A DNA stretch of 52,468 nt, from the IMG/VR virus record IMGVR_UViG_3300005663_000006, positions 1-52,468 of that record; one strand, 5' to 3'. The translations under genes were made by a program, and so were the position numbers. Position 1 is the first letter of the stretch, and each line of letters opens with the position of its first letter. This DNA comes from a virus. Below, one piece after another: positions 4,438 through 46,041 of the stretch. A model generated the notes under the pieces. That model was given only the letters and a program-made list of their open reading frames with translations, made no database searches and was not told where the DNA came from.

Positions 4438-5580
4438 ATGAGATGTCTAAACCGTTTAATAAAATGGATTCGGGTAGCGAACTCGCCATCACTGTGGGTG
4501 GTGGTGGGGGCACTCCTAATTCCTTGCTTCGTCCTGCTGAAACCCCTTCCGGGCGGAATAGCTATATCCCTTACATCATTCAAGTCTGCGGCTGGCCTAT
4601 CGGTTGCAATCATTCTGTTGGGAATGCTGACGCATATCCCTTGGATAGGGGTCATCTGCCTCTTTATCGTCGCCCAATGGTGGGTGTTTGGGTTGGCGAG
4701 GTGGGCGATAGTATTTCTTCTGTTTCTCATGGGGTGGATGGGATGGCTGCTGGCGTGCCAGAGGGTGGGGGAGAAAGCCGCTCGACTGGTGCAGTGGGCG
4801 TTCCTTTGGGCGGCGGTGGTACAGGTAGTCTTTATGCTTATGCAGTTACATCAGATTGACCCGATTATAATACCGATAGAGGCGAGCGGAAAGCTTCAGA
4901 TGAACATGCCCCAACCCGTTGTCGGTTTATTTGCAAATCCTTCCGATGTGGGAATATTTCTCGCACTCATACTTCCAATGGCTTTAACAATTAACCATAC
5001 CCTCGATGCCACGTTTTCTTTTTTGATTGGATTGGGCATTGCGCTCAGTCGAAGCTCTGCGGCCCTTGGAGCAGCGTTAATCATCATTGGGCTTTGGTTC
5101 GTTCACCTGATTTGGAGCGGAAAGCTATCGTGGCGCTGGTTCCTTGGCACAATTCCCATAGTGGGAGGCCTGTGGTTCTGGTTCACCAAGATAGACCCGC
5201 TCTCACACTCTCTTATGCGCCTCAACATCTGGGGTGCTGGTCTGAGGGTTTGGAAAATATCGCCATGGATTGGTCTTGGTCCCGGCGCGATGGGAAGCAA
5301 GTGGAAATTTCTTCACCGAGGCTCGGCCTGGACGATGTTTCATAACGAATACCTTGAGACGCTTTTCAATGGTGGGATTATCGGCCTTGCTCTAGTGGCG
5401 ATGTTAATTCTCTGGACCGCGCGGCGGTGCTGGTCTCATGAGATACAGCCCGTTCTGTGGATGGGTCTTTTGGCCGTGGCTGTGACGGCTACGGTAAGCA
5501 TACCGTTCCACATTATGCCGACGGCGATAGTCGCGGCTTGGTACTTGGGGCAGACCTGGAGGCGTGATGAAACTATCTAA
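4438..5580 (+). CDS. O-antigen polymerase/ligase-like membrane protein (Wzy/WaaL family, 380 aa)
   Basis: A polytopic membrane protein with about ten hydrophobic segments and the Wzy_C/WaaL signature near the C-terminus: WKISPWIGLGPGAMG (272-286), HNEYLE (302-307) and NGGIIGL (311-317). An upstream LSRSSAAL (203-210) matches the family's conserved Ser-Arg turn. Family members polymerise or ligate lipid-linked glycans on the periplasmic side of the inner membrane. The gene overlaps the next one by 14 bases. The ATG at 4438 has no Shine-Dalgarno; the upstream stretch is pyrimidine-rich, so expression may be low or coupled. Some temperate phages use such enzymes for seroconversion. Here it lies inside a virion operon. 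Confidence 0.82.
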   Translation: MRCLNRLIKWIRVANSPSLWVVVGALLIPCFVLLKPLPGGIAISLTSFKSAAGLSVAIILLGMLTHIPWIGVICLFIVAQWWVFGLARWAIVFLLFLMGWMGWLLACQRVGEKAARLVQWAFLWAAVVQVVFMLMQLHQIDPIIIPIEASGKLQMNMPQPVVGLFANPSDVGIFLALILPMALTINHTLDATFSFLIGLGIALSRSSAALGAALIIIGLWFVHLIWSGKLSWRWFLGTIPIVGGLWFWFTKIDPLSHSLMRLNIWGAGLRVWKISPWIGLGPGAMGSKWKFLHRGSAWTMFHNEYLETLFNGGIIGLALVAMLILWTARRCWSHEIQPVLWMGLLAVAVTATVSIPFHIMPTAIVAAWYLGQTWRRDETI

Positions 5581-40644: not shown

Positions 40645-40677
40645 GCCGGTACCTTGGGAGGGGATGTCGGCTTTTTT
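40645..40677 (+). terminator. Attenuator-like hairpin in the leader
   Basis: GCCG (40645-40648) pairs with CGGC (40668-40671), extended by wobble pairs, and is followed by TTTTTT (40672-40677). ACATCC and GGATGT flank it as an alternative stem. It lies between the promoter and the first gene. Confidence 0.5.
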
Positions 40678-40694
40678 CTATTGGGGGATGGTAG

Positions 40695-40907: not shown

Positions 40908-40938
40908 AGCCTTATAATAAAGAAAGGATCTTATATAT

Positions 40939-41199
40939 ATGGTGATTGAGTTCGAGGAACACAAGGTAGAGTCGGTTGAAAGGTCCCCCATTGCCATTGT
41001 CTGCGATAGATGCAATGCCCGATTTCGTCACAAAGATGACATCTGGGAGTATCTGGAAATCCTGCGGGTCGATTTCACGGGAGGATATGGTTCCATCTTC
41101 GGGGATGGCTGCAAGTTTGAATGTGACCTTTGTCAAGAGTGCGTGAAGAAGATCCTGGGCCCCTTCCTGAGGAAAACCCAAATCAATGAATATATATAA
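40939..41199 (+). CDS. Zinc-ribbon protein (86 aa)
   Basis: Leader AAAGAAAGGAT is shared with the next gene. CDRC (22-25) and CDLCQEC (about 62-68) give a four- or five-cysteine metal site. Ends in a short A/T-rich, Ile-rich tail. Confidence 0.58.
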   Translation: MVIEFEEHKVESVERSPIAIVCDRCNARFRHKDDIWEYLEILRVDFTGGYGSIFGDGCKFECDLCQECVKKILGPFLRKTQINEYI

Positions 41200-41221
41200 A
41201 TAAAGAAAGGATATTAAATAT

Positions 41222-41743
41222 ATGAGCAAGGCACCACACGGTACACCAGAAATTAAAGCCCTCGCATCCATAAAACATAGAGACGGAGAAACACACAGAG
41301 AAATAGCCGAACAATTAGGAATATCCAGATCTACATCAGAACGATGGATCAGCGAACACGCAACCGAGACAAGCAAAGAATCCCTGGAACAAATAAAAGA
41401 AGCAATCGAAAAAGCAGACTACGCCTTCCTAGCACAATCTGCATATATACAGTCTTTAATAACTAATACTATTATAAAGAAAATACACGGCAATGAATTA
41501 GACCACCTGAGCCTGCAGGAACTATTCAGAGCGGGCGTAGAAGAAGGCAAAAGATATGGTATCAGGACCGATAAGGTCTTGATGAGGGAAGGAGGGGTCA
41601 TTCCAGGGGCCCCTGCGCCCTCTGTGGCGGCTCTGTTGGCCCTTGCGCTGTCCAGGGCTGAGATGGATAGGGCGGCTGCTGAGCGCATTAAGGCCGAGAC
41701 TAAGGCATACGAGGCCAGCTACAAGGAGAAGCTTGTCAATTAG
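41222..41743 (+). CDS. terS: Putative small terminase subunit with HTH (173 aa)
   Basis: HREIAEQLGISRSTSERWISEH (about residues 25-46) is a Myb/HTH-like DNA-binding helix pair as in small terminases. The rest is helical, with a Glu/Ala-rich C-terminal oligomerisation region. The large terminase is 6 kb downstream, farther than usual. The first 120 codons are A-rich with AGA and ATA codons; the last 50 are G/C-rich, a clear change of composition inside the gene. Confidence 0.55.
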   Translation: MSKAPHGTPEIKALASIKHRDGETHREIAEQLGISRSTSERWISEHATETSKESLEQIKEAIEKADYAFLAQSAYIQSLITNTIIKKIHGNELDHLSLQELFRAGVEEGKRYGIRTDKVLMREGGVIPGAPAPSVAALLALALSRAEMDRAAAERIKAETKAYEASYKEKLVN

Positions 41744-41747
41744 TCCT

Positions 41748-42044
41748 ATGAATGGGCGATATGCCCAGCTTCCGATAATATCTATTAAGTTAACTGTCTA
41801 TCATATCAATAGGATACAGCGAGACAGGGCGTCTATCCTTCCCGAGGGTCATAATCAAACGAATATAGAGCGCATGGAGCCTGTGACCGTGACGCATTGG
41901 CATGGTGGGGCGGGGGCCGTGGTCCTGGACCTGGACAGGCAATCTCTGGAAAATGAAGGGGGGGGGAGCCCCCAAACGCACTCAGAATGTGAATATACTG
42001 TCCGTAACGGGAATTTTTTCTGGAAGGGTTTAGCCTGTGGATGA
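41748..42044 (+). other. Leader region of the XRE gene holding a doubtful 98-aa frame
   Basis: An open frame runs across this 290-base stretch, but its end encodes the repeated leader element found before other genes, so the frame is more likely noncoding. Codon choice is irregular and there is a GGGGGGG tract. I see no other gene here; it probably holds regulation for the gene at 42037. Confidence 0.45.
42007..42021 (+). promoter_or_regulatory. Repeated leader element, copy 1
   Basis: ACGGGAATTTTTTCT, 30 bases before the start of the XRE gene at 42037. The flanks also match copy 2 (TATACTGTC before, GGGTTT and GCCT after). Confidence 0.75.
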
Positions 42045-42261
42045 GTTTTTCAATTCAAGCATCGCTACCCAAATCAAAACACTTCGCAAGCAACGGGATT
42101 GGACGCAGGAGGATTTAGCGAAAAAAGCGAATATGAAGCAAGCAAGAATTTCACTTTTAGAAAATGCAAGTTATTCATCATGGAGCATGAGCACACTAAG
42201 AAGGCTAGCCGAGGCGTTCGACTTAACTTTATATGTTACGTTTGAGGTGGCTAATGATTAA
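42037..42261 (+). CDS. XRE-family HTH regulator (74 aa)
   Basis: GTG start with GGAAGGG upstream. A Cro/C1-type HTH: IKTLRKQRDWTQEDLAKKA, then ARISLLENASY and a third helix; the length fits a one-domain repressor or antitoxin. It is the first gene bearing the repeated leader element, so it could control itself and the other genes that carry it. Confidence 0.82.
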   Translation: MDEFFNSSIATQIKTLRKQRDWTQEDLAKKANMKQARISLLENASYSSWSMSTLRRLAEAFDLTLYVTFEVAND

Positions 42262-43036
42262 CAAGGAATTGCTGGAGAGGAAGTTTGTTGGGATGGGCTC
42301 TCGCGTGAAGTTTCGTTCGTTGGTTCGCAGGCATCGTGACGATGGTGCGGTAATATCGGTTGATGTGGGTCGAGACAGGCGGGGGGAGTTCTTTGATGTG
42401 CGCCTGCTTCCCGATTCTCGGCTCGACTTACTTGTTATGGACGTTCAGGCCAAGGACCGCCATCTTTTGCTTATGGTCAAGGGCGAGGGACTGTTTCACA
42501 AGTATCTCTGCGGGCACGATGAGCGCCATTGGTTTGTAGCGGCTGTTCCTGAGTCTTCGGGGGCGTCAAGTGTTAGCCAGGCGATGGATGCACTCAGGCC
42601 CGAAATGGTGAAAGAAGCGAGGGGCTACATCCGTCAAGGCGAATGGTTTTTTATTCCTGCTCCCGGAAAAGAGATAGAAGATATACTCGTCTTGAAGAAG
42701 GAGTCGTTGATTCGAGGTGGGGGCAAGCCACATGTTGCTGAGTTTTTGTGTCGAGAGGGCGGCACCCTCGTCTACGTCAATCGGTTAAACCCCAACGGAC
42801 TTACCCAGGAAGAATATGAGGAAGGCTTGAAAAACATTAAAGTCGCAAGGGAGCGAGGCGAGATTGTGCCGGGAGGGGGCCCTTTCACAAGAATGATGCG
42901 GGATATGGATGTCTATGTTAAAGGTCGCATATCACATTCTGACCATGCGACCGTTACACTCAATGTATGGCATAGGGTGGCGATGAATACTGAGAATCAA
43001 TCGAACGCGATGGCGTTTGTGGCTTTTCTGGATTAA
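42254..43036 (+). CDS. Hypothetical protein of a bacterial/phage family (260 aa)
   Basis: Overlaps the XRE gene by eight bases. The segments VDVGRDRRGEFFDVRL, VQAKDRHLLLMVK and CGHDERHWFVAAVPE recall a conserved family of unknown function that I have seen in diverse bacteria and mobile elements. Alpha/beta with a basic C-terminal half. Pairing with an XRE gene is reminiscent of toxin-antitoxin layouts, but size and lack of a toxin motif argue against a firm call. Confidence 0.6.
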   Translation: MINKELLERKFVGMGSRVKFRSLVRRHRDDGAVISVDVGRDRRGEFFDVRLLPDSRLDLLVMDVQAKDRHLLLMVKGEGLFHKYLCGHDERHWFVAAVPESSGASSVSQAMDALRPEMVKEARGYIRQGEWFFIPAPGKEIEDILVLKKESLIRGGGKPHVAEFLCREGGTLVYVNRLNPNGLTQEEYEEGLKNIKVARERGEIVPGGGPFTRMMRDMDVYVKGRISHSDHATVTLNVWHRVAMNTENQSNAMAFVAFLD

Positions 43037-43121
43037 ATATGCCCTCACGTGGTTTTTTTTGAGAGAGGGTTCGGGTGGTGGTCGATGCCCATGATGCTGA
43101 AATGGAATTATACTGTCTCTC

Positions 43122-43136
43122 GTGGGAATTTTTTCT
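43122..43136 (+). promoter_or_regulatory. Repeated leader element, copy 2
   Basis: GTGGGAATTTTTTCT, 32 bases before the start at 43154, followed by AGGAGGG. TATACTGTC stands upstream as in copy 1. A degenerate copy (ACGTGGTTTTTTTT) lies at 43047. Confidence 0.75.
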
Positions 43137-43153
43137 AGGAGGGTTTTTGCCTT

Positions 43154-43423
43154 GTGAGTGTTTCTGGTTATGAGGGTTATGGTGGCGGGGAGGTTTTTTT
43201 CCGTCGTACCACGACTCCTTGGTATTTGCTGGATGTTTTGACGAAGGCTGATGGAGAGGCTGGTTTGGTTTATGCGACTAAGCGGGAAGCCAGGGTTGCT
43301 GCGAGTGCTATTCGTAGTGTCGGGTGGATGCCTCGATTAGAGAGGTGTTCGTGGGGGCCTCGTTCGCACCTGAAGAGGCGCTTTAGATATACCTGGAAGG
43401 CCGAATGGCGCGTTATGTGGTGA
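43154..43423 (+). CDS. Small basic protein (89 aa)
   Basis: GTG start, AGGAGGG upstream. Gly/Tyr-rich start, then strongly basic with many Arg and Trp residues. Unknown. Confidence 0.55.
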   Translation: MSVSGYEGYGGGEVFFRRTTTPWYLLDVLTKADGEAGLVYATKREARVAASAIRSVGWMPRLERCSWGPRSHLKRRFRYTWKAEWRVMW

Positions 43424-43429
43424 CCCGCC

Positions 43430-43444
43430 ACGGGATTTTTTTCT
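43430..43444 (+). promoter_or_regulatory. Repeated leader element, copy 3
   Basis: ACGGGATTTTTTTCT, 28 bases before the start at 43458. CCCG upstream pairs with CGGG to give a 4-bp hairpin before the T-run. Confidence 0.72.
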
Positions 43445-43457
43445 TAGGATTTAGAGC

Positions 43458-43727
43458 ATGGCCATGGCATTTGATAAATTTCAGAAACTCGACAGTTTTT
43501 TAAAGTTAGAGCCCGGCTGGGATAGCTATGGTGCCCCTGCAATTTCCAGAAAAGCTTTATTCGCGGCTCAGAATATAATGTTTCATCTTTTGACCAACGC
43601 CCCTTCTTTTATTGGTCCGACATCCCACGGTGGCGTTCATTTAGAATGGAATCATGGTGGCTATAGCATTGAGATTGAGATTGGTCCCAATGGTAAGATA
43701 TCTGAGGCTTGTTTTTTTGATGATTAA
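43458..43727 (+). CDS. Small conserved-type protein (89 aa)
   Basis: LEPGWDSYGAPAIS and the later GGVHLEWNHGGYSIEIEIGPNG match a compact family I recognise from phages and mobile elements, often described as hypothetical. Two strands and helices form a single domain. Function unknown. Confidence 0.68.
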   Translation: MAMAFDKFQKLDSFLKLEPGWDSYGAPAISRKALFAAQNIMFHLLTNAPSFIGPTSHGGVHLEWNHGGYSIEIEIGPNGKISEACFFDD

Positions 43728-43733
43728 TCCGCC

Positions 43734-43748
43734 AGGGGAATTTTTTCT
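43734..43748 (+). promoter_or_regulatory. Repeated leader element, copy 4
   Basis: AGGGGAATTTTTTCT, 36 bases before the start at 43770. Confidence 0.72.
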
Positions 43749-43769
43749 GTAATAGTTTGAGGGGGTTAT

Positions 43770-43895
43770 ATGGTTTGGTTTGCTCTTGTCATCTCGCTTG
43801 GCTTTATTCTTATCTGTCTGGCTCTGTGGATAATCAATGCATGGCTTAAGGAATTAGATTCGCGGGTGGCTGAATTGGAGAGACGCAAGGCATGA
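43770..43895 (+). CDS. Single-helix membrane peptide with coiled tail (41 aa)
   Basis: GAGGGGG precedes the ATG. One hydrophobic helix (3-25) followed by a charged helical tail. ATGA overlap with a 23-aa frame that crosses element copy 5 and is doubtful. Confidence 0.55.
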   Translation: MVWFALVISLGFILICLALWIINAWLKELDSRVAELERRKA

Positions 43896-43942
43896 CGTTC
43901 AGGGATATGATTGAAAGGGTTCGTTTAGAGGTGGGTTGTTCC

Positions 43943-43958
43943 ACGGGAATTTTTTTCA
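43943..43958 (+). promoter_or_regulatory. Repeated leader element, copy 5
   Basis: ACGGGAATTTTTTTCA, 38 bases before the start at 43981. TTCC upstream pairs with GGAA. Confidence 0.72.
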
Positions 43959-43980
43959 CATAGTTTAGGAGGTGTGCGAC

Positions 43981-44220
43981 ATGGGTAACGAGGTAATTGT
44001 TCAGTTGGAAGAGTGTGAGTATTCGGGTTGGAGAATAAGGTTAATTTTTCCCCTCAAGAATATGCATGGGAAGCCTTCTAGTGCCGACCTTGACTATTGG
44101 GAGGATAGCGAGGAGATGAGTGAGTCTGGGGCTGTTCATGTGGCGAGGGTGGTTGCTGATTTGTTCGTGAATGCGAAGGCACAGTATCGGGTTCCCAAGC
44201 ATGAGATTACGGAGCTTTAA
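43981..44220 (+). CDS. Hypothetical protein (79 aa)
   Basis: AGGAGGTG precedes ATG 43981. Alpha/beta with an acidic middle. TAATG coupling to the next frame. Unknown. Confidence 0.6.
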   Translation: MGNEVIVQLEECEYSGWRIRLIFPLKNMHGKPSSADLDYWEDSEEMSESGAVHVARVVADLFVNAKAQYRVPKHEITEL

Positions 44221-44366
44221 TGCCTGGCGTGAGGCTATATCAGCAATGGTGGATTTATTGGTGTAGGCATTATGGTTATGGGGCGGACCAGCTTCCCCGC
44301 GTTGGGCGCAGATACAACATTGGGCACAATGAGTTAGGTTCCGCTTTGGCCGTTCCCGGGGTTTAG
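44220..44366 (+). CDS. Aromatic small protein (48 aa)
   Basis: ATG overlaps the previous stop. Trp/Tyr/Arg-rich, one Cys. After it, a 57-base gap holds an 18-aa frame with little support. Confidence 0.45.
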   Translation: MPGVRLYQQWWIYWCRHYGYGADQLPRVGRRYNIGHNELGSALAVPGV

Positions 44367-44425
44367 GACATGTCTATTTCTCGCAGGGGTTTTTTAGGTG
44401 GTGTTGCGTGGCGGAAGGTAGTATA

Positions 44426-44527
44426 ATGCGGGAACATTTTATTGGGATTGCTTTCACGCTTATTTTGGCTATTGTCAGTTTCATTTTTCTTGCTGAGTTA
44501 TCCGGCTGGTGGTTGGGGGTTAAGTGA
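44426..44527 (+). CDS. Single-helix membrane peptide (33 aa)
   Basis: ATG in TAATG arrangement. A hydrophobic helix fills residues 5-25. Coupled to the next gene by a TGATG junction. Confidence 0.5.
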   Translation: MREHFIGIAFTLILAIVSFIFLAELSGWWLGVK

Positions 44528-44721
44528 TGATTAGTCGGGAAAATTCAGATGCTCTTTGCGGATTTTTATTTTTGGTCTTGATATTCCTTCTTTGTCTTAT
44601 TGTGCTTCCCACAAGAGAGTTCTTAATTTTTTTTAGTGTTTTAGCGGTTGTCGGAACAATCGCCTCGATGTTGGTTCTTAAATATGCATGGCGACTCCGT
44701 AAGTGGGATAACGATGACTAA
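44527..44721 (+). CDS. Two-helix membrane protein (64 aa)
   Basis: ATG 44527 (GTG 44524 also possible). Two hydrophobic helices (9-28, 32-52) with a basic Arg-rich end. Eight-base overlap downstream. Confidence 0.58.
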   Translation: MISRENSDALCGFLFLVLIFLLCLIVLPTREFLIFFSVLAVVGTIASMLVLKYAWRLRKWDNDD

Positions 44722-44911
44722 AGCCATCCGCTACCCAGAAAATCATTCCAAGTTCGTCAAGCGTCCTGTGAGGGCCTACGAGGAAAAGATACGAACGTGT
44801 CTGGGGATTACTTGGCATGGCGAATATTGCGATGCGAAGTTTTTGTCGTGGGGGCCCCAGAATAGGTTCTGCGGTAAATGCGGGACGAAGCAGAGGGGGG
44901 CGGGGTTTTGA
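44714..44911 (+). CDS. Basic zinc-ribbon protein (65 aa)
   Basis: Contains a single Cys near the middle, YCDAKF, and FCGKCGTK near the end, giving a four-Cys ribbon. TGATG coupling to the next gene. Confidence 0.58.
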   Translation: MTKAIRYPENHSKFVKRPVRAYEEKIRTCLGITWHGEYCDAKFLSWGPQNRFCGKCGTKQRGAGF

Positions 44912-45117
44912 TGTCTGGATTAGTTGATGCGATATTAACCATTCAGCGCAGACTGGACAATATTGAGGATTTTTTGATTGGGATATTTAACAGCCAAGAT
45001 GGTAGCGTCACCATCGGTCAGGTGACCAAGATGAAAGAGTTTCACTCGGTCGTTGAGGAATTGCGCAAGAGCCCTACATTGATTAAACCGGGTGAATATC
45101 CAATGGGAGTTCCCTAA
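44911..45117 (+). CDS. Helical protein (68 aa)
   Basis: Coupled start. Amphipathic helices with Ile/Leu repeats and a Gly-rich end. Its stop lies within the first copy of the direct repeat at 45115-45130. Confidence 0.55.
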   Translation: MSGLVDAILTIQRRLDNIEDFLIGIFNSQDGSVTIGQVTKMKEFHSVVEELRKSPTLIKPGEYPMGVP

Positions 45118-45130
45118 ATGCCCACCTGGA
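45115..45130. repeat. 16-bp direct repeat, copy 1
   Basis: TAAATGCCCACCTGGA, repeated at 45375-45390. The copies start 260 bp apart and bracket the gene at 45138. Each carries a stop and an ATG CCC ACC TGG (MPTW) start; only copy 2 leads into a long frame. Confidence 0.8.
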
Positions 45131-45137
45131 TTTTAGA

Positions 45138-45377
45138 ATGAACTATTCTGAAATCGTCGCAAAAGTTAAGGAGTGCCTCGATGATAAGAGACCAATATAC
45201 CATGAAGATTTGGCAAAATTTCTTAGCGGTGTTTATAACGAACCCTCGCTTATGAATGTAAAGGGATTTGTTATGAGCCGGGAATTTATAGATATTTTGG
45301 TGGAAGGTGAAATTTGGAACATGAAAAATGCGTGGCGGAAACACAAATTTGAAGCGGCGCGTAGAATGGGGCCATAA
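45138..45377 (+). CDS. Small hypothetical protein between direct repeats (79 aa)
   Basis: Helical, charged, A/T-richer than its neighbours. It fills the space between the two repeat copies, so it may be an insertion or a duplication product. Unknown. Confidence 0.6.
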   Translation: MNYSEIVAKVKECLDDKRPIYHEDLAKFLSGVYNEPSLMNVKGFVMSREFIDILVEGEIWNMKNAWRKHKFEAARRMGP

Positions 45378-45390
45378 ATGCCCACCTGGA
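45375..45390. repeat. 16-bp direct repeat, copy 2
   Basis: Second TAAATGCCCACCTGGA, at the start of the 82-aa gene at 45378. Confidence 0.8.
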
Positions 45391-45626
45391 CGCTCTGGCT
45401 TCTGTTTTTAACGACATGGAATTATTCGGGCGTCGCCATGACCCCAGGATTTGTGTCGTGGATGCTCTATGAGACTAGGACTGAGTGCCTGCAGGCGGCC
45501 AAGACGTTGATTCAGCCGACTGTCTGTATGACCGTTGATATGCCCCACCCGTATCCCATAGCAATGACTGAGAGCGAATACGAAGAGGCGATGCGTGAGA
45601 AGAGGATAAAGGAGGAGGCGTTTTAG
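45378..45626 (+). CDS. Signal-like small protein (82 aa)
   Basis: Begins with MPTWTLWLLFL, a membrane-type segment, then a two-Cys region and an acidic helix. Could be an anchored periplasmic protein with a disulfide. Confidence 0.58.
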   Translation: MPTWTLWLLFLTTWNYSGVAMTPGFVSWMLYETRTECLQAAKTLIQPTVCMTVDMPHPYPIAMTESEYEEAMREKRIKEEAF

Positions 45627-45806
45627 GTGAACCTTGACCCTCGCCCCCTATTTTATGGTTTCTGCTTCTTTATTTTGCTGGTGTCGGTGCTAATGATGAT
45701 TCGCACTTGCAAGCGTGATTTTATAAGCAGGGCATCTGGCCCGTCTCAAGCGTGGGCAACTTGTCAGAAGGCGTCTAGCGTCGGTGTGAGATTGAATGGG
45801 TGCTGA
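45627..45806 (+). CDS. Membrane-anchored small protein (59 aa)
   Basis: GTG start directly after the previous stop; GGAGGAGGCG upstream. One hydrophobic helix (8-27), then a basic region with several Cys. Confidence 0.5.
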   Translation: MNLDPRPLFYGFCFFILLVSVLMMIRTCKRDFISRASGPSQAWATCQKASSVGVRLNGC

Positions 45807-45807
45807 G

Positions 45808-46041
45808 ATGAGCAAAGGAATTGAATTTCGTGATGGCAAAATATTCAAAGTTCCATTTTCAAATAGGTCAGAATATCTTCACGCCCTCTGGCTTCAGTAT
45901 TTGGGTGAGAAACGGGTAGATGAGTCGAAAAGAGTGGTCGGTTTTGATAGCCCCGACGTCCACAGGCTTCGCAGGATTGCCGAGACTGAGCATAAGCTAA
46001 TGAATCCGGCCGAGGGCGTTCACTTCGAGGGGGATGGATGA
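45808..46041 (+). CDS. Hypothetical protein (77 aa)
   Basis: Begins after a GCTGAG leader at ATG 45808; a GTG-type upstream start would overlap the previous gene. Alpha/beta; His-rich end. Unknown. Confidence 0.58.
   Translation: MSKGIEFRDGKIFKVPFSNRSEYLHALWLQYLGEKRVDESKRVVGFDSPDVHRLRRIAETEHKLMNPAEGVHFEGDG

What the first reader, a model, noticed from the sequence alone, without database searches (positions are those of the whole stretch)
42007..43958. A 15-bp leader element repeated before five small genes
ACGGGAATTTTTTCT-like copies at 42007, 43122, 43430, 43734 and 43943 stand 28-38 bases before start codons, always just ahead of the ribosome site. Copies 1 and 2 also share TATACTGTC and downstream bases. 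The first controls an XRE regulator. It may be an operator or phage-specific promoter, or a mini-terminator (short stem plus T6) that sets expression gene by gene.
Basis: partly seen in the sequence, partly recalled or inferred. Interest (0 to 1): 0.78.

Follow-up and report, generated by a model that had tools for sequence, protein, structure and literature searches.

The report
Repeated leader before phage genes
A little-known phage carries five same-direction copies of a short G-rich plus T-run sequence, each just ahead of the ribosome-binding site of a small gene; it looks like a home-grown gene-start signal spread by copying leaders, comparable in kind to the 'start-associated sequences' of some mycobacterial phages, whose job is also unknown.

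Summary
The core GGGA(A/T)T6-7C occurs five times, all on the + strand within 2 kb. The core lies 26-36 nt before the starts at 42037, 43154, 43458, 43770 and 43981, directly ahead of the Shine-Dalgarno (SD) sequence. No exact copy lies elsewhere in the window, and a local Markov model never gives more than one.

Copies 1 and 2 are duplicates of a whole leader, through the start codon. Copies 3/4 share upstream bases and 4/5 share downstream bases. This suggests spread by leader duplication with drift.

The element is private to this phage. It is absent from 28 capsid relatives, and across IMG/VR it is not more common ahead of an SD than a reversed control (5 hits against 18). No fold is shared by the copies, copies 3-5 have no promoter hexamers, and the element is not palindromic. 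No copy lies in the divergent control region, where an XRE operator would be expected.

Best reading: a start-associated leader element acting in mRNA at translation initiation (U-tract beside the SD), analogous to the SAS of cluster K mycobacteriophages but different in sequence and position. This function is inferred. Passive leader duplication, an operator or stoperator, and an attenuator remain open. Some relatives seem to carry their own unrelated start-associated repeats.

The parts
42007..42021 (+). copy 1 (ACGGGAATTTTTTCT), GGG 28 nt before GTG at 42037; SD GGAAGGG adjacent
41986..42036 (+). leader of copy 1, homologous to the leader of copy 2, with TATACTGTC at about 41995-42003
   Evidence: 78% over 46 nt; alignment
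42037..42261 (+). XRE-type HTH regulator, 74 aa (HTH_3 / HTH_37)
   Evidence: Pfam HTH_3 E 2.9e-13
42254..43036 (+). 260-aa protein of unknown family, overlapping the end of the XRE gene; has no copy of the element of its own
   Evidence: 16 relatives in viral contigs, none seen with an XRE gene directly upstream
43122..43136 (+). copy 2 (GTGGGAATTTTTTCT), GGG 30 nt before GTG at 43154; SD AGGAGGG adjacent
43154..43423 (+). 89-aa orphan protein
   Evidence: no family at E<=0.01
43430..43444 (+). copy 3 (ACGGGATTTTTTTCT), GGG 26 nt before ATG at 43458; SD TTAGGA adjacent
43458..43727 (+). 89-aa protein with an EPGWDSYG motif
   Evidence: three relatives, 35-47% identity, none with repeated copies of the element in the flanks
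43734..43748 (+). copy 4 (AGGGGAATTTTTTCT), GGG 34 nt before ATG at 43770; SD GAGGGGG about 10 nt downstream
43770..43895 (+). 41-aa predicted small membrane protein (hydrophobic N-terminal half)
   Evidence: translation read by eye; no Pfam family
43943..43958 (+). copy 5 (ACGGGAATTTTTTTC, one extra T), GGG 36 nt before ATG at 43981; SD AGGAGG about 9 nt downstream
43981..44220 (+). 79-aa orphan protein (ATG start; an in-frame GTG at 43972 would give 82 aa)
   Evidence: no family
40672..40679 (+). TTTTTTCT tract before the SD of the first rightward gene (start 40695); related T-tract without GGGA, uncertain member

Best explanation
The element is a dispersed, one-orientation, start-associated leader of the rightward early genes of this phage. 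Shown: five copies, each between the preceding gene and the SD of a small gene, private to this phage, with pairwise homology that suggests copying of leader segments. Inferred: it acts in the mRNA as an upstream part of the translation initiation region. The single-stranded U6-7 tract beside the SD would serve as a docking or standby site for the ribosome (a U-rich S1-type enhancer), and the conserved GGGA 5' of it would be a recognition mark for a phage- or host-encoded RNA-binding factor that sets the yield of these small proteins together. Copies 1 and 2 may also carry their own -10 hexamer (TATACT).
For: Fixed orientation and a fixed place, 26-36 nt before five starts and just 5' of the SD. 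Not chance under local composition. In the window 9 pairs of leaders match at 16/20 or better, against 0 pairs of equal stretches inside genes. A U6CU tract also stands before the SD of the first rightward gene. No competing RNA fold or Rfam family. No promoter hexamers at copies 3-5. Precedents: the SAS of cluster K mycobacteriophages, 13-bp one-orientation repeats at gene starts of the non-structural half, for which a role in translation initiation is proposed but untested (PMC3203893); and an A/U-rich enhancer upstream of the SD in the T7 gene 10 leader, proposed to act through ribosomal protein S1 (PMC8748333).
Against: Only five copies in one genome and no close relative, so there is no conservation test of function. 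The gap between the U-tract and the SD differs (0-2 nt in copies 1-3, about 9-10 nt in 4-5). U-rich enhancers need no GGGA, so its conservation is unexplained. Common descent by duplication could explain the likeness without function. In predicted folds of some copies the U-tract pairs with the SD region, which would hinder initiation.
Confidence: 0.42

Rival explanations
1. Passive leader duplication: a leader with a good SD was copied with, or recombined in front of, incoming small genes (a gene-boundary linker for module shuffling). The copies are alike by recent descent, not because GGGA-T6 is read by anything.
For: Copies 1 and 2 are alike through the start codon. Different pairs share different flanks. 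Two other leader or start pairs lie nearby with different sequences: 40916/41199 (92%) and 45112/45372 (95%). Some relatives also have leader pairs, e.g. a near-identical stretch of about 30 nt in G011. The 42-46 kb stretch is a G+T-rich island.
Against: Apart from copies 1/2, the flanks have diverged while GGGAWT6 is invariant in all five, which points to selection on the core.
Confidence: 0.22
2. DNA operator or stoperator: the XRE protein (or the phage repressor) binds the asymmetric site in each leader and blocks initiation or elongation, autoregulating its own gene through copy 1.
For: Copy 1 precedes the XRE gene. Asymmetric, one-orientation sites in short intergenic gaps are what cluster A mycobacteriophage stoperators look like (PMC9283540 abstract, supplemented by own knowledge).
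Against: No copy in the divergent control region around 40.5-40.7 kb or before the leftward genes. The only inverted symmetry is GAA-T4-TTC, which copies 3 and 5 break. Small XRE dimers usually bind palindromes (own knowledge). T-run length varies. No site outside 2 kb.
Confidence: 0.15
3. Attenuator or pause site: a small hairpin (YCC...GGR) followed by U6-7 ends or pauses part of the transcription before each gene, grading expression along the operon.
For: Every copy is G-rich followed by U6-7. Stems of 3-6 bp can be drawn upstream of each, and the terminator scan flags copies 3 and 5. Upstream folding is somewhat better than shuffles (fractions 0.19, 0.39, 0.08, 0.28, 0.05).
Against: Stems abutting the T-run are only 3-4 bp (about -3 kcal/mol). 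The stronger stems of copies 3 and 5 end 4-5 nt before the T-run. No stem is shared by sequence or position. The terminator scan of the region found 10 sites against 6.6 expected.
Confidence: 0.13
4. Phage-specific promoter, with transcripts starting at or just after the element before each gene.
For: Copies 1 and 2 carry TATACTGTC about 14-15 nt upstream of GGG, where a -10 box would give a start near GGG.
Against: Copies 3-5 share nothing at that place; copies 3 and 4 begin 6 nt after the preceding stop codon; the sigma-70 scan finds no site. No phage RNA polymerase was among the proteins scanned, but not all proteins were scanned.
Confidence: 0.08

Closest known systems
Start-Associated Sequences (SAS) of cluster K mycobacteriophages (GGGATAGGAGCCC; PMC3203893)
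   Same: Short asymmetric repeat, one orientation, at gene starts, in non-structural genes, rare or absent outside the phage group; function unknown, translation initiation proposed.
   Different: Sequence unrelated. The SAS contains the SD and lies 3-7 bp from the start; ours lies 5' of the SD, with GGG 26-36 nt from the start. 11-19 copies per genome and conserved in a cluster; here five copies in one phage. No extended 17-bp inverted repeat seen.
Cluster A mycobacteriophage stoperators (L5 type)
   Same: Asymmetric sites oriented with transcription in short intergenic gaps.
   Different: Stoperators are distributed across the genome and are bound by the immunity repressor; ours are five in 2 kb, and no binding protein is known.
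U-rich or A/U-rich S1-type translation enhancers (T7 gene 10 leader; PMC8748333)
   Same: U-rich tract just upstream of the SD.
   Different: Not known to me as repeated dispersed copies with a conserved GGGA 5' end.

Membership tests
Cluster K SAS | matches GGGATAGGAGCCC with at most 2 deviations | tested here: not met
   Element is GGGAWTTTTTTC, by comparison with the consensus
Cluster K SAS | located 3-7 bp before the start codon and containing the SD | tested here: not met
   GGG to start 26-36 nt; the SD lies downstream of the element
Cluster K SAS | single orientation, upstream of starts, confined to non-structural genes | tested here: met
   5 of 5 on + strand before starts; recognised head and tail genes lie elsewhere in the window
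Stoperator | sites distributed across the genome | tested here: not met
   all copies within 42.0-44.0 kb
Stoperator | bound by the phage repressor | not testable with these tools
   needs a binding assay
Intrinsic terminator | GC-rich stem abutting the U-tract | tested here: not met
   abutting stems 3-4 bp, about -3 kcal/mol; stronger stems end 4-5 nt early
Sigma-70 promoter | -35 and -10 hexamers at proper spacing | tested here: not met
   no hit at any copy; TATACT alone at copies 1 and 2
S1-type U-rich enhancer | stimulates translation through S1 | not testable with these tools
   needs reporter and toeprint assays

The most novel reading that the evidence does not exclude
A group of uncultivated phages whose members each invent and spread their own start-associated leader sequence (here GGGAWT6-7C; CAGGAGAGACC in G014) as a private tag read by a cognate phage factor, so that newly captured small genes are put under common post-transcriptional control.
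Probability: 0.12. Interest if true: 0.7.

Novelty: new variant of a known kind. Interest (0 to 1): 0.38.

Why it matters
Repeated gene-start sequences are known mainly from mycobacteriophages, and their job has been open since 2011. A second, unrelated instance in an uncultivated phage, and apparent further ones in its relatives, would suggest that such private leader signals arise repeatedly. It would also give a compact five-site case in which translation enhancement, repressor binding and attenuation can be told apart with simple reporters.

Tried and rejected
DNA similarity to phage records: no match. Element in 28 capsid relatives plus one XRE-homologue record: no exact copy, three 1-mismatch hits; their placement relative to gene starts was not systematically checked. 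Element near homologues of the 260-aa and 89-aa genes: none repeated. Pattern element+SD+ATG in IMG/VR: 5 single hits against 18 for the reversed control, so not a widespread phage signal. Same pattern in 84,980 genomes: 45 hits, one per locus, across many phyla, read as background; no control was run there, and a search for repeated copies in those loci found no similar array. Genome-wide 12-mer over-representation was uninformative for this element because it ignores position. Coding reading of the element rejected: the frames through the copies differ (by eye). Rfam: nothing. A conserved XRE plus 260-aa operon was not seen in relatives. The 260-aa search in capsid relatives was empty.

Full report
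Observation. The window is a 52,468-base IMG/VR virus record. It encodes a phage of no close known relative: the major capsid protein is at most about 60% identical to full-length relatives in IMG/VR and under 30% to phage records. Head and tail genes are recognised in the first 17 kb. A Mu Gam-like protein and a replication initiation protein lie at 31-35 kb. Leftward genes occupy about 37.8-40.8 kb and rightward genes follow from 40.7 kb. The core is GGGA(A/T)T6-7C. Four copies match it exactly, the fifth has one T more, and no other exact copy exists on either strand. A second-order Markov model of the region gave zero cores in 1991 of 2000 runs and one in the other 9; four were observed.

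Anatomy. GGG stands 28, 30, 26, 34 and 36 nt before the starts at 42037, 43154, 43458, 43770 and 43981, and the SD follows directly (copies 1-3) or after about 9-10 nt (copies 4, 5). Copies 1 and 2 share 78% over 46 nt and the likeness reaches the GTG start codon. Copies 3 and 4 share CCGCCA(C/G)GGG upstream; copies 4 and 5 share ATAGTTT and the SD downstream. Alignment of all five leaves 14 invariant columns, ten of them the GGGA and T6 core. This chain of partial likeness fits copying of leader segments followed by drift around a kept core. In a position-blind comparison, 9 pairs of leaders in the window matched at 16/20 or better, against 0 pairs of equal stretches inside genes.

Spread. 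The element is private. Among 28 records of capsid relatives and one XRE-homologue record there is no exact 13-mer copy and only three single 1-mismatch hits; I did not map those hits relative to gene starts. Flanks of homologues of the 260-aa and 89-aa genes lack repeated copies. In all IMG/VR the pattern element+SD+ATG has 5 hits, one per locus, fewer than the reversed control with 18. In 84,980 genomes it has 45 hits scattered over many phyla; no reversed control was run there, so that these are background is an inference. No fetched locus holds a comparable array.

Relatives may have their own. G014 (capsid 53% identical) has CAGGAGAGACC directly before at least five starts within 2 kb, plus one on the other strand before an ATG; this repeat includes the SD, so part of its likeness is expected of any SD. 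G011 has two leaders alike over about 30 nt, G006 a 24-26-nt pair and a CCAGAAAGGAA set, and G024 three leaders ending AATGGAGAAT. The same test gives as many or more pairs inside genes as before starts in G014, G015, G020 and G026, so the generalisation to the group is a lead, not a result.

Mechanism. Promoter: only copies 1 and 2 have TATACT and no sigma-70 site is found. Terminator: stems that abut the T-run are 3-4 bp, and the fraction of shuffles folding as well is 0.05-0.39; no fold is shared by the five leaders and Rfam finds nothing. Operator: the site is asymmetric, T-run length varies, and no copy lies in the divergent control region. Remaining and best by position is a start-associated element in the mRNA next to the SD. 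The U6-7 tract resembles U-rich enhancers upstream of the SD, for which an interaction with ribosomal protein S1 has been proposed (PMC8748333). The conserved GGGA would then be a mark for a further factor. Passive duplication is the main rival.

Comparison. The nearest known kind is the SAS of cluster K mycobacteriophages (PMC3203893; PMC12699233): short, asymmetric, one-orientation repeats at starts of non-structural genes, function untested. Ours fails two defining features, sequence and position relative to the SD, so it is not a member; it may work like one.

Noticed in passing
window 40916-40941 and 41199-41224: A second duplicated leader, AATAAAGAAAGGAT(C/A)TTA(T/A)ATATATG, 92% identical, ending in the start codons of two neighbouring genes.
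   Followed up: partly
window 45112-45130 and 45372-45390: Duplicated gene start TAAATGCCCACCTGGA; the first copy opens an ORF that stops after 7 codons and runs into the next gene's ATG, as if a gene start were left behind by recombination.
   Followed up: no
window 42000-46000: Compositional island: G- and T-rich coding strand (AT skew about -0.1, GC skew about +0.24), unlike most of the phage.
   Followed up: partly
window 4438-5580: O-antigen ligase-like protein (Wzy_C, E 5.8e-09) a little downstream of the major capsid gene.
   Followed up: no
L080 (G014:C1 25461-27486): A relative with its own start-associated repeat CAGGAGAGACC before at least five genes.
   Followed up: partly
L089 (G011:C1 25741-26388): Near-identical leader of about 30 nt (CCTTAACTCCAAGGACGGAGCCCACAAACGGA) before two genes.
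   Followed up: no
L098 (G006:C1 2899 and 16810): Leader stretch ATTTAAGAAATACTTTTGTTAATTT shared by two distant genes, not including the SD.
   Followed up: no
window 44371-44427: 18-codon ORF MSISRRGFLGGVAWRKVV with a Tat-like SRRGFL motif whose codons form GGGGTTTTTTAGG, a look-alike of the element (coordinates read by eye).
   Followed up: no
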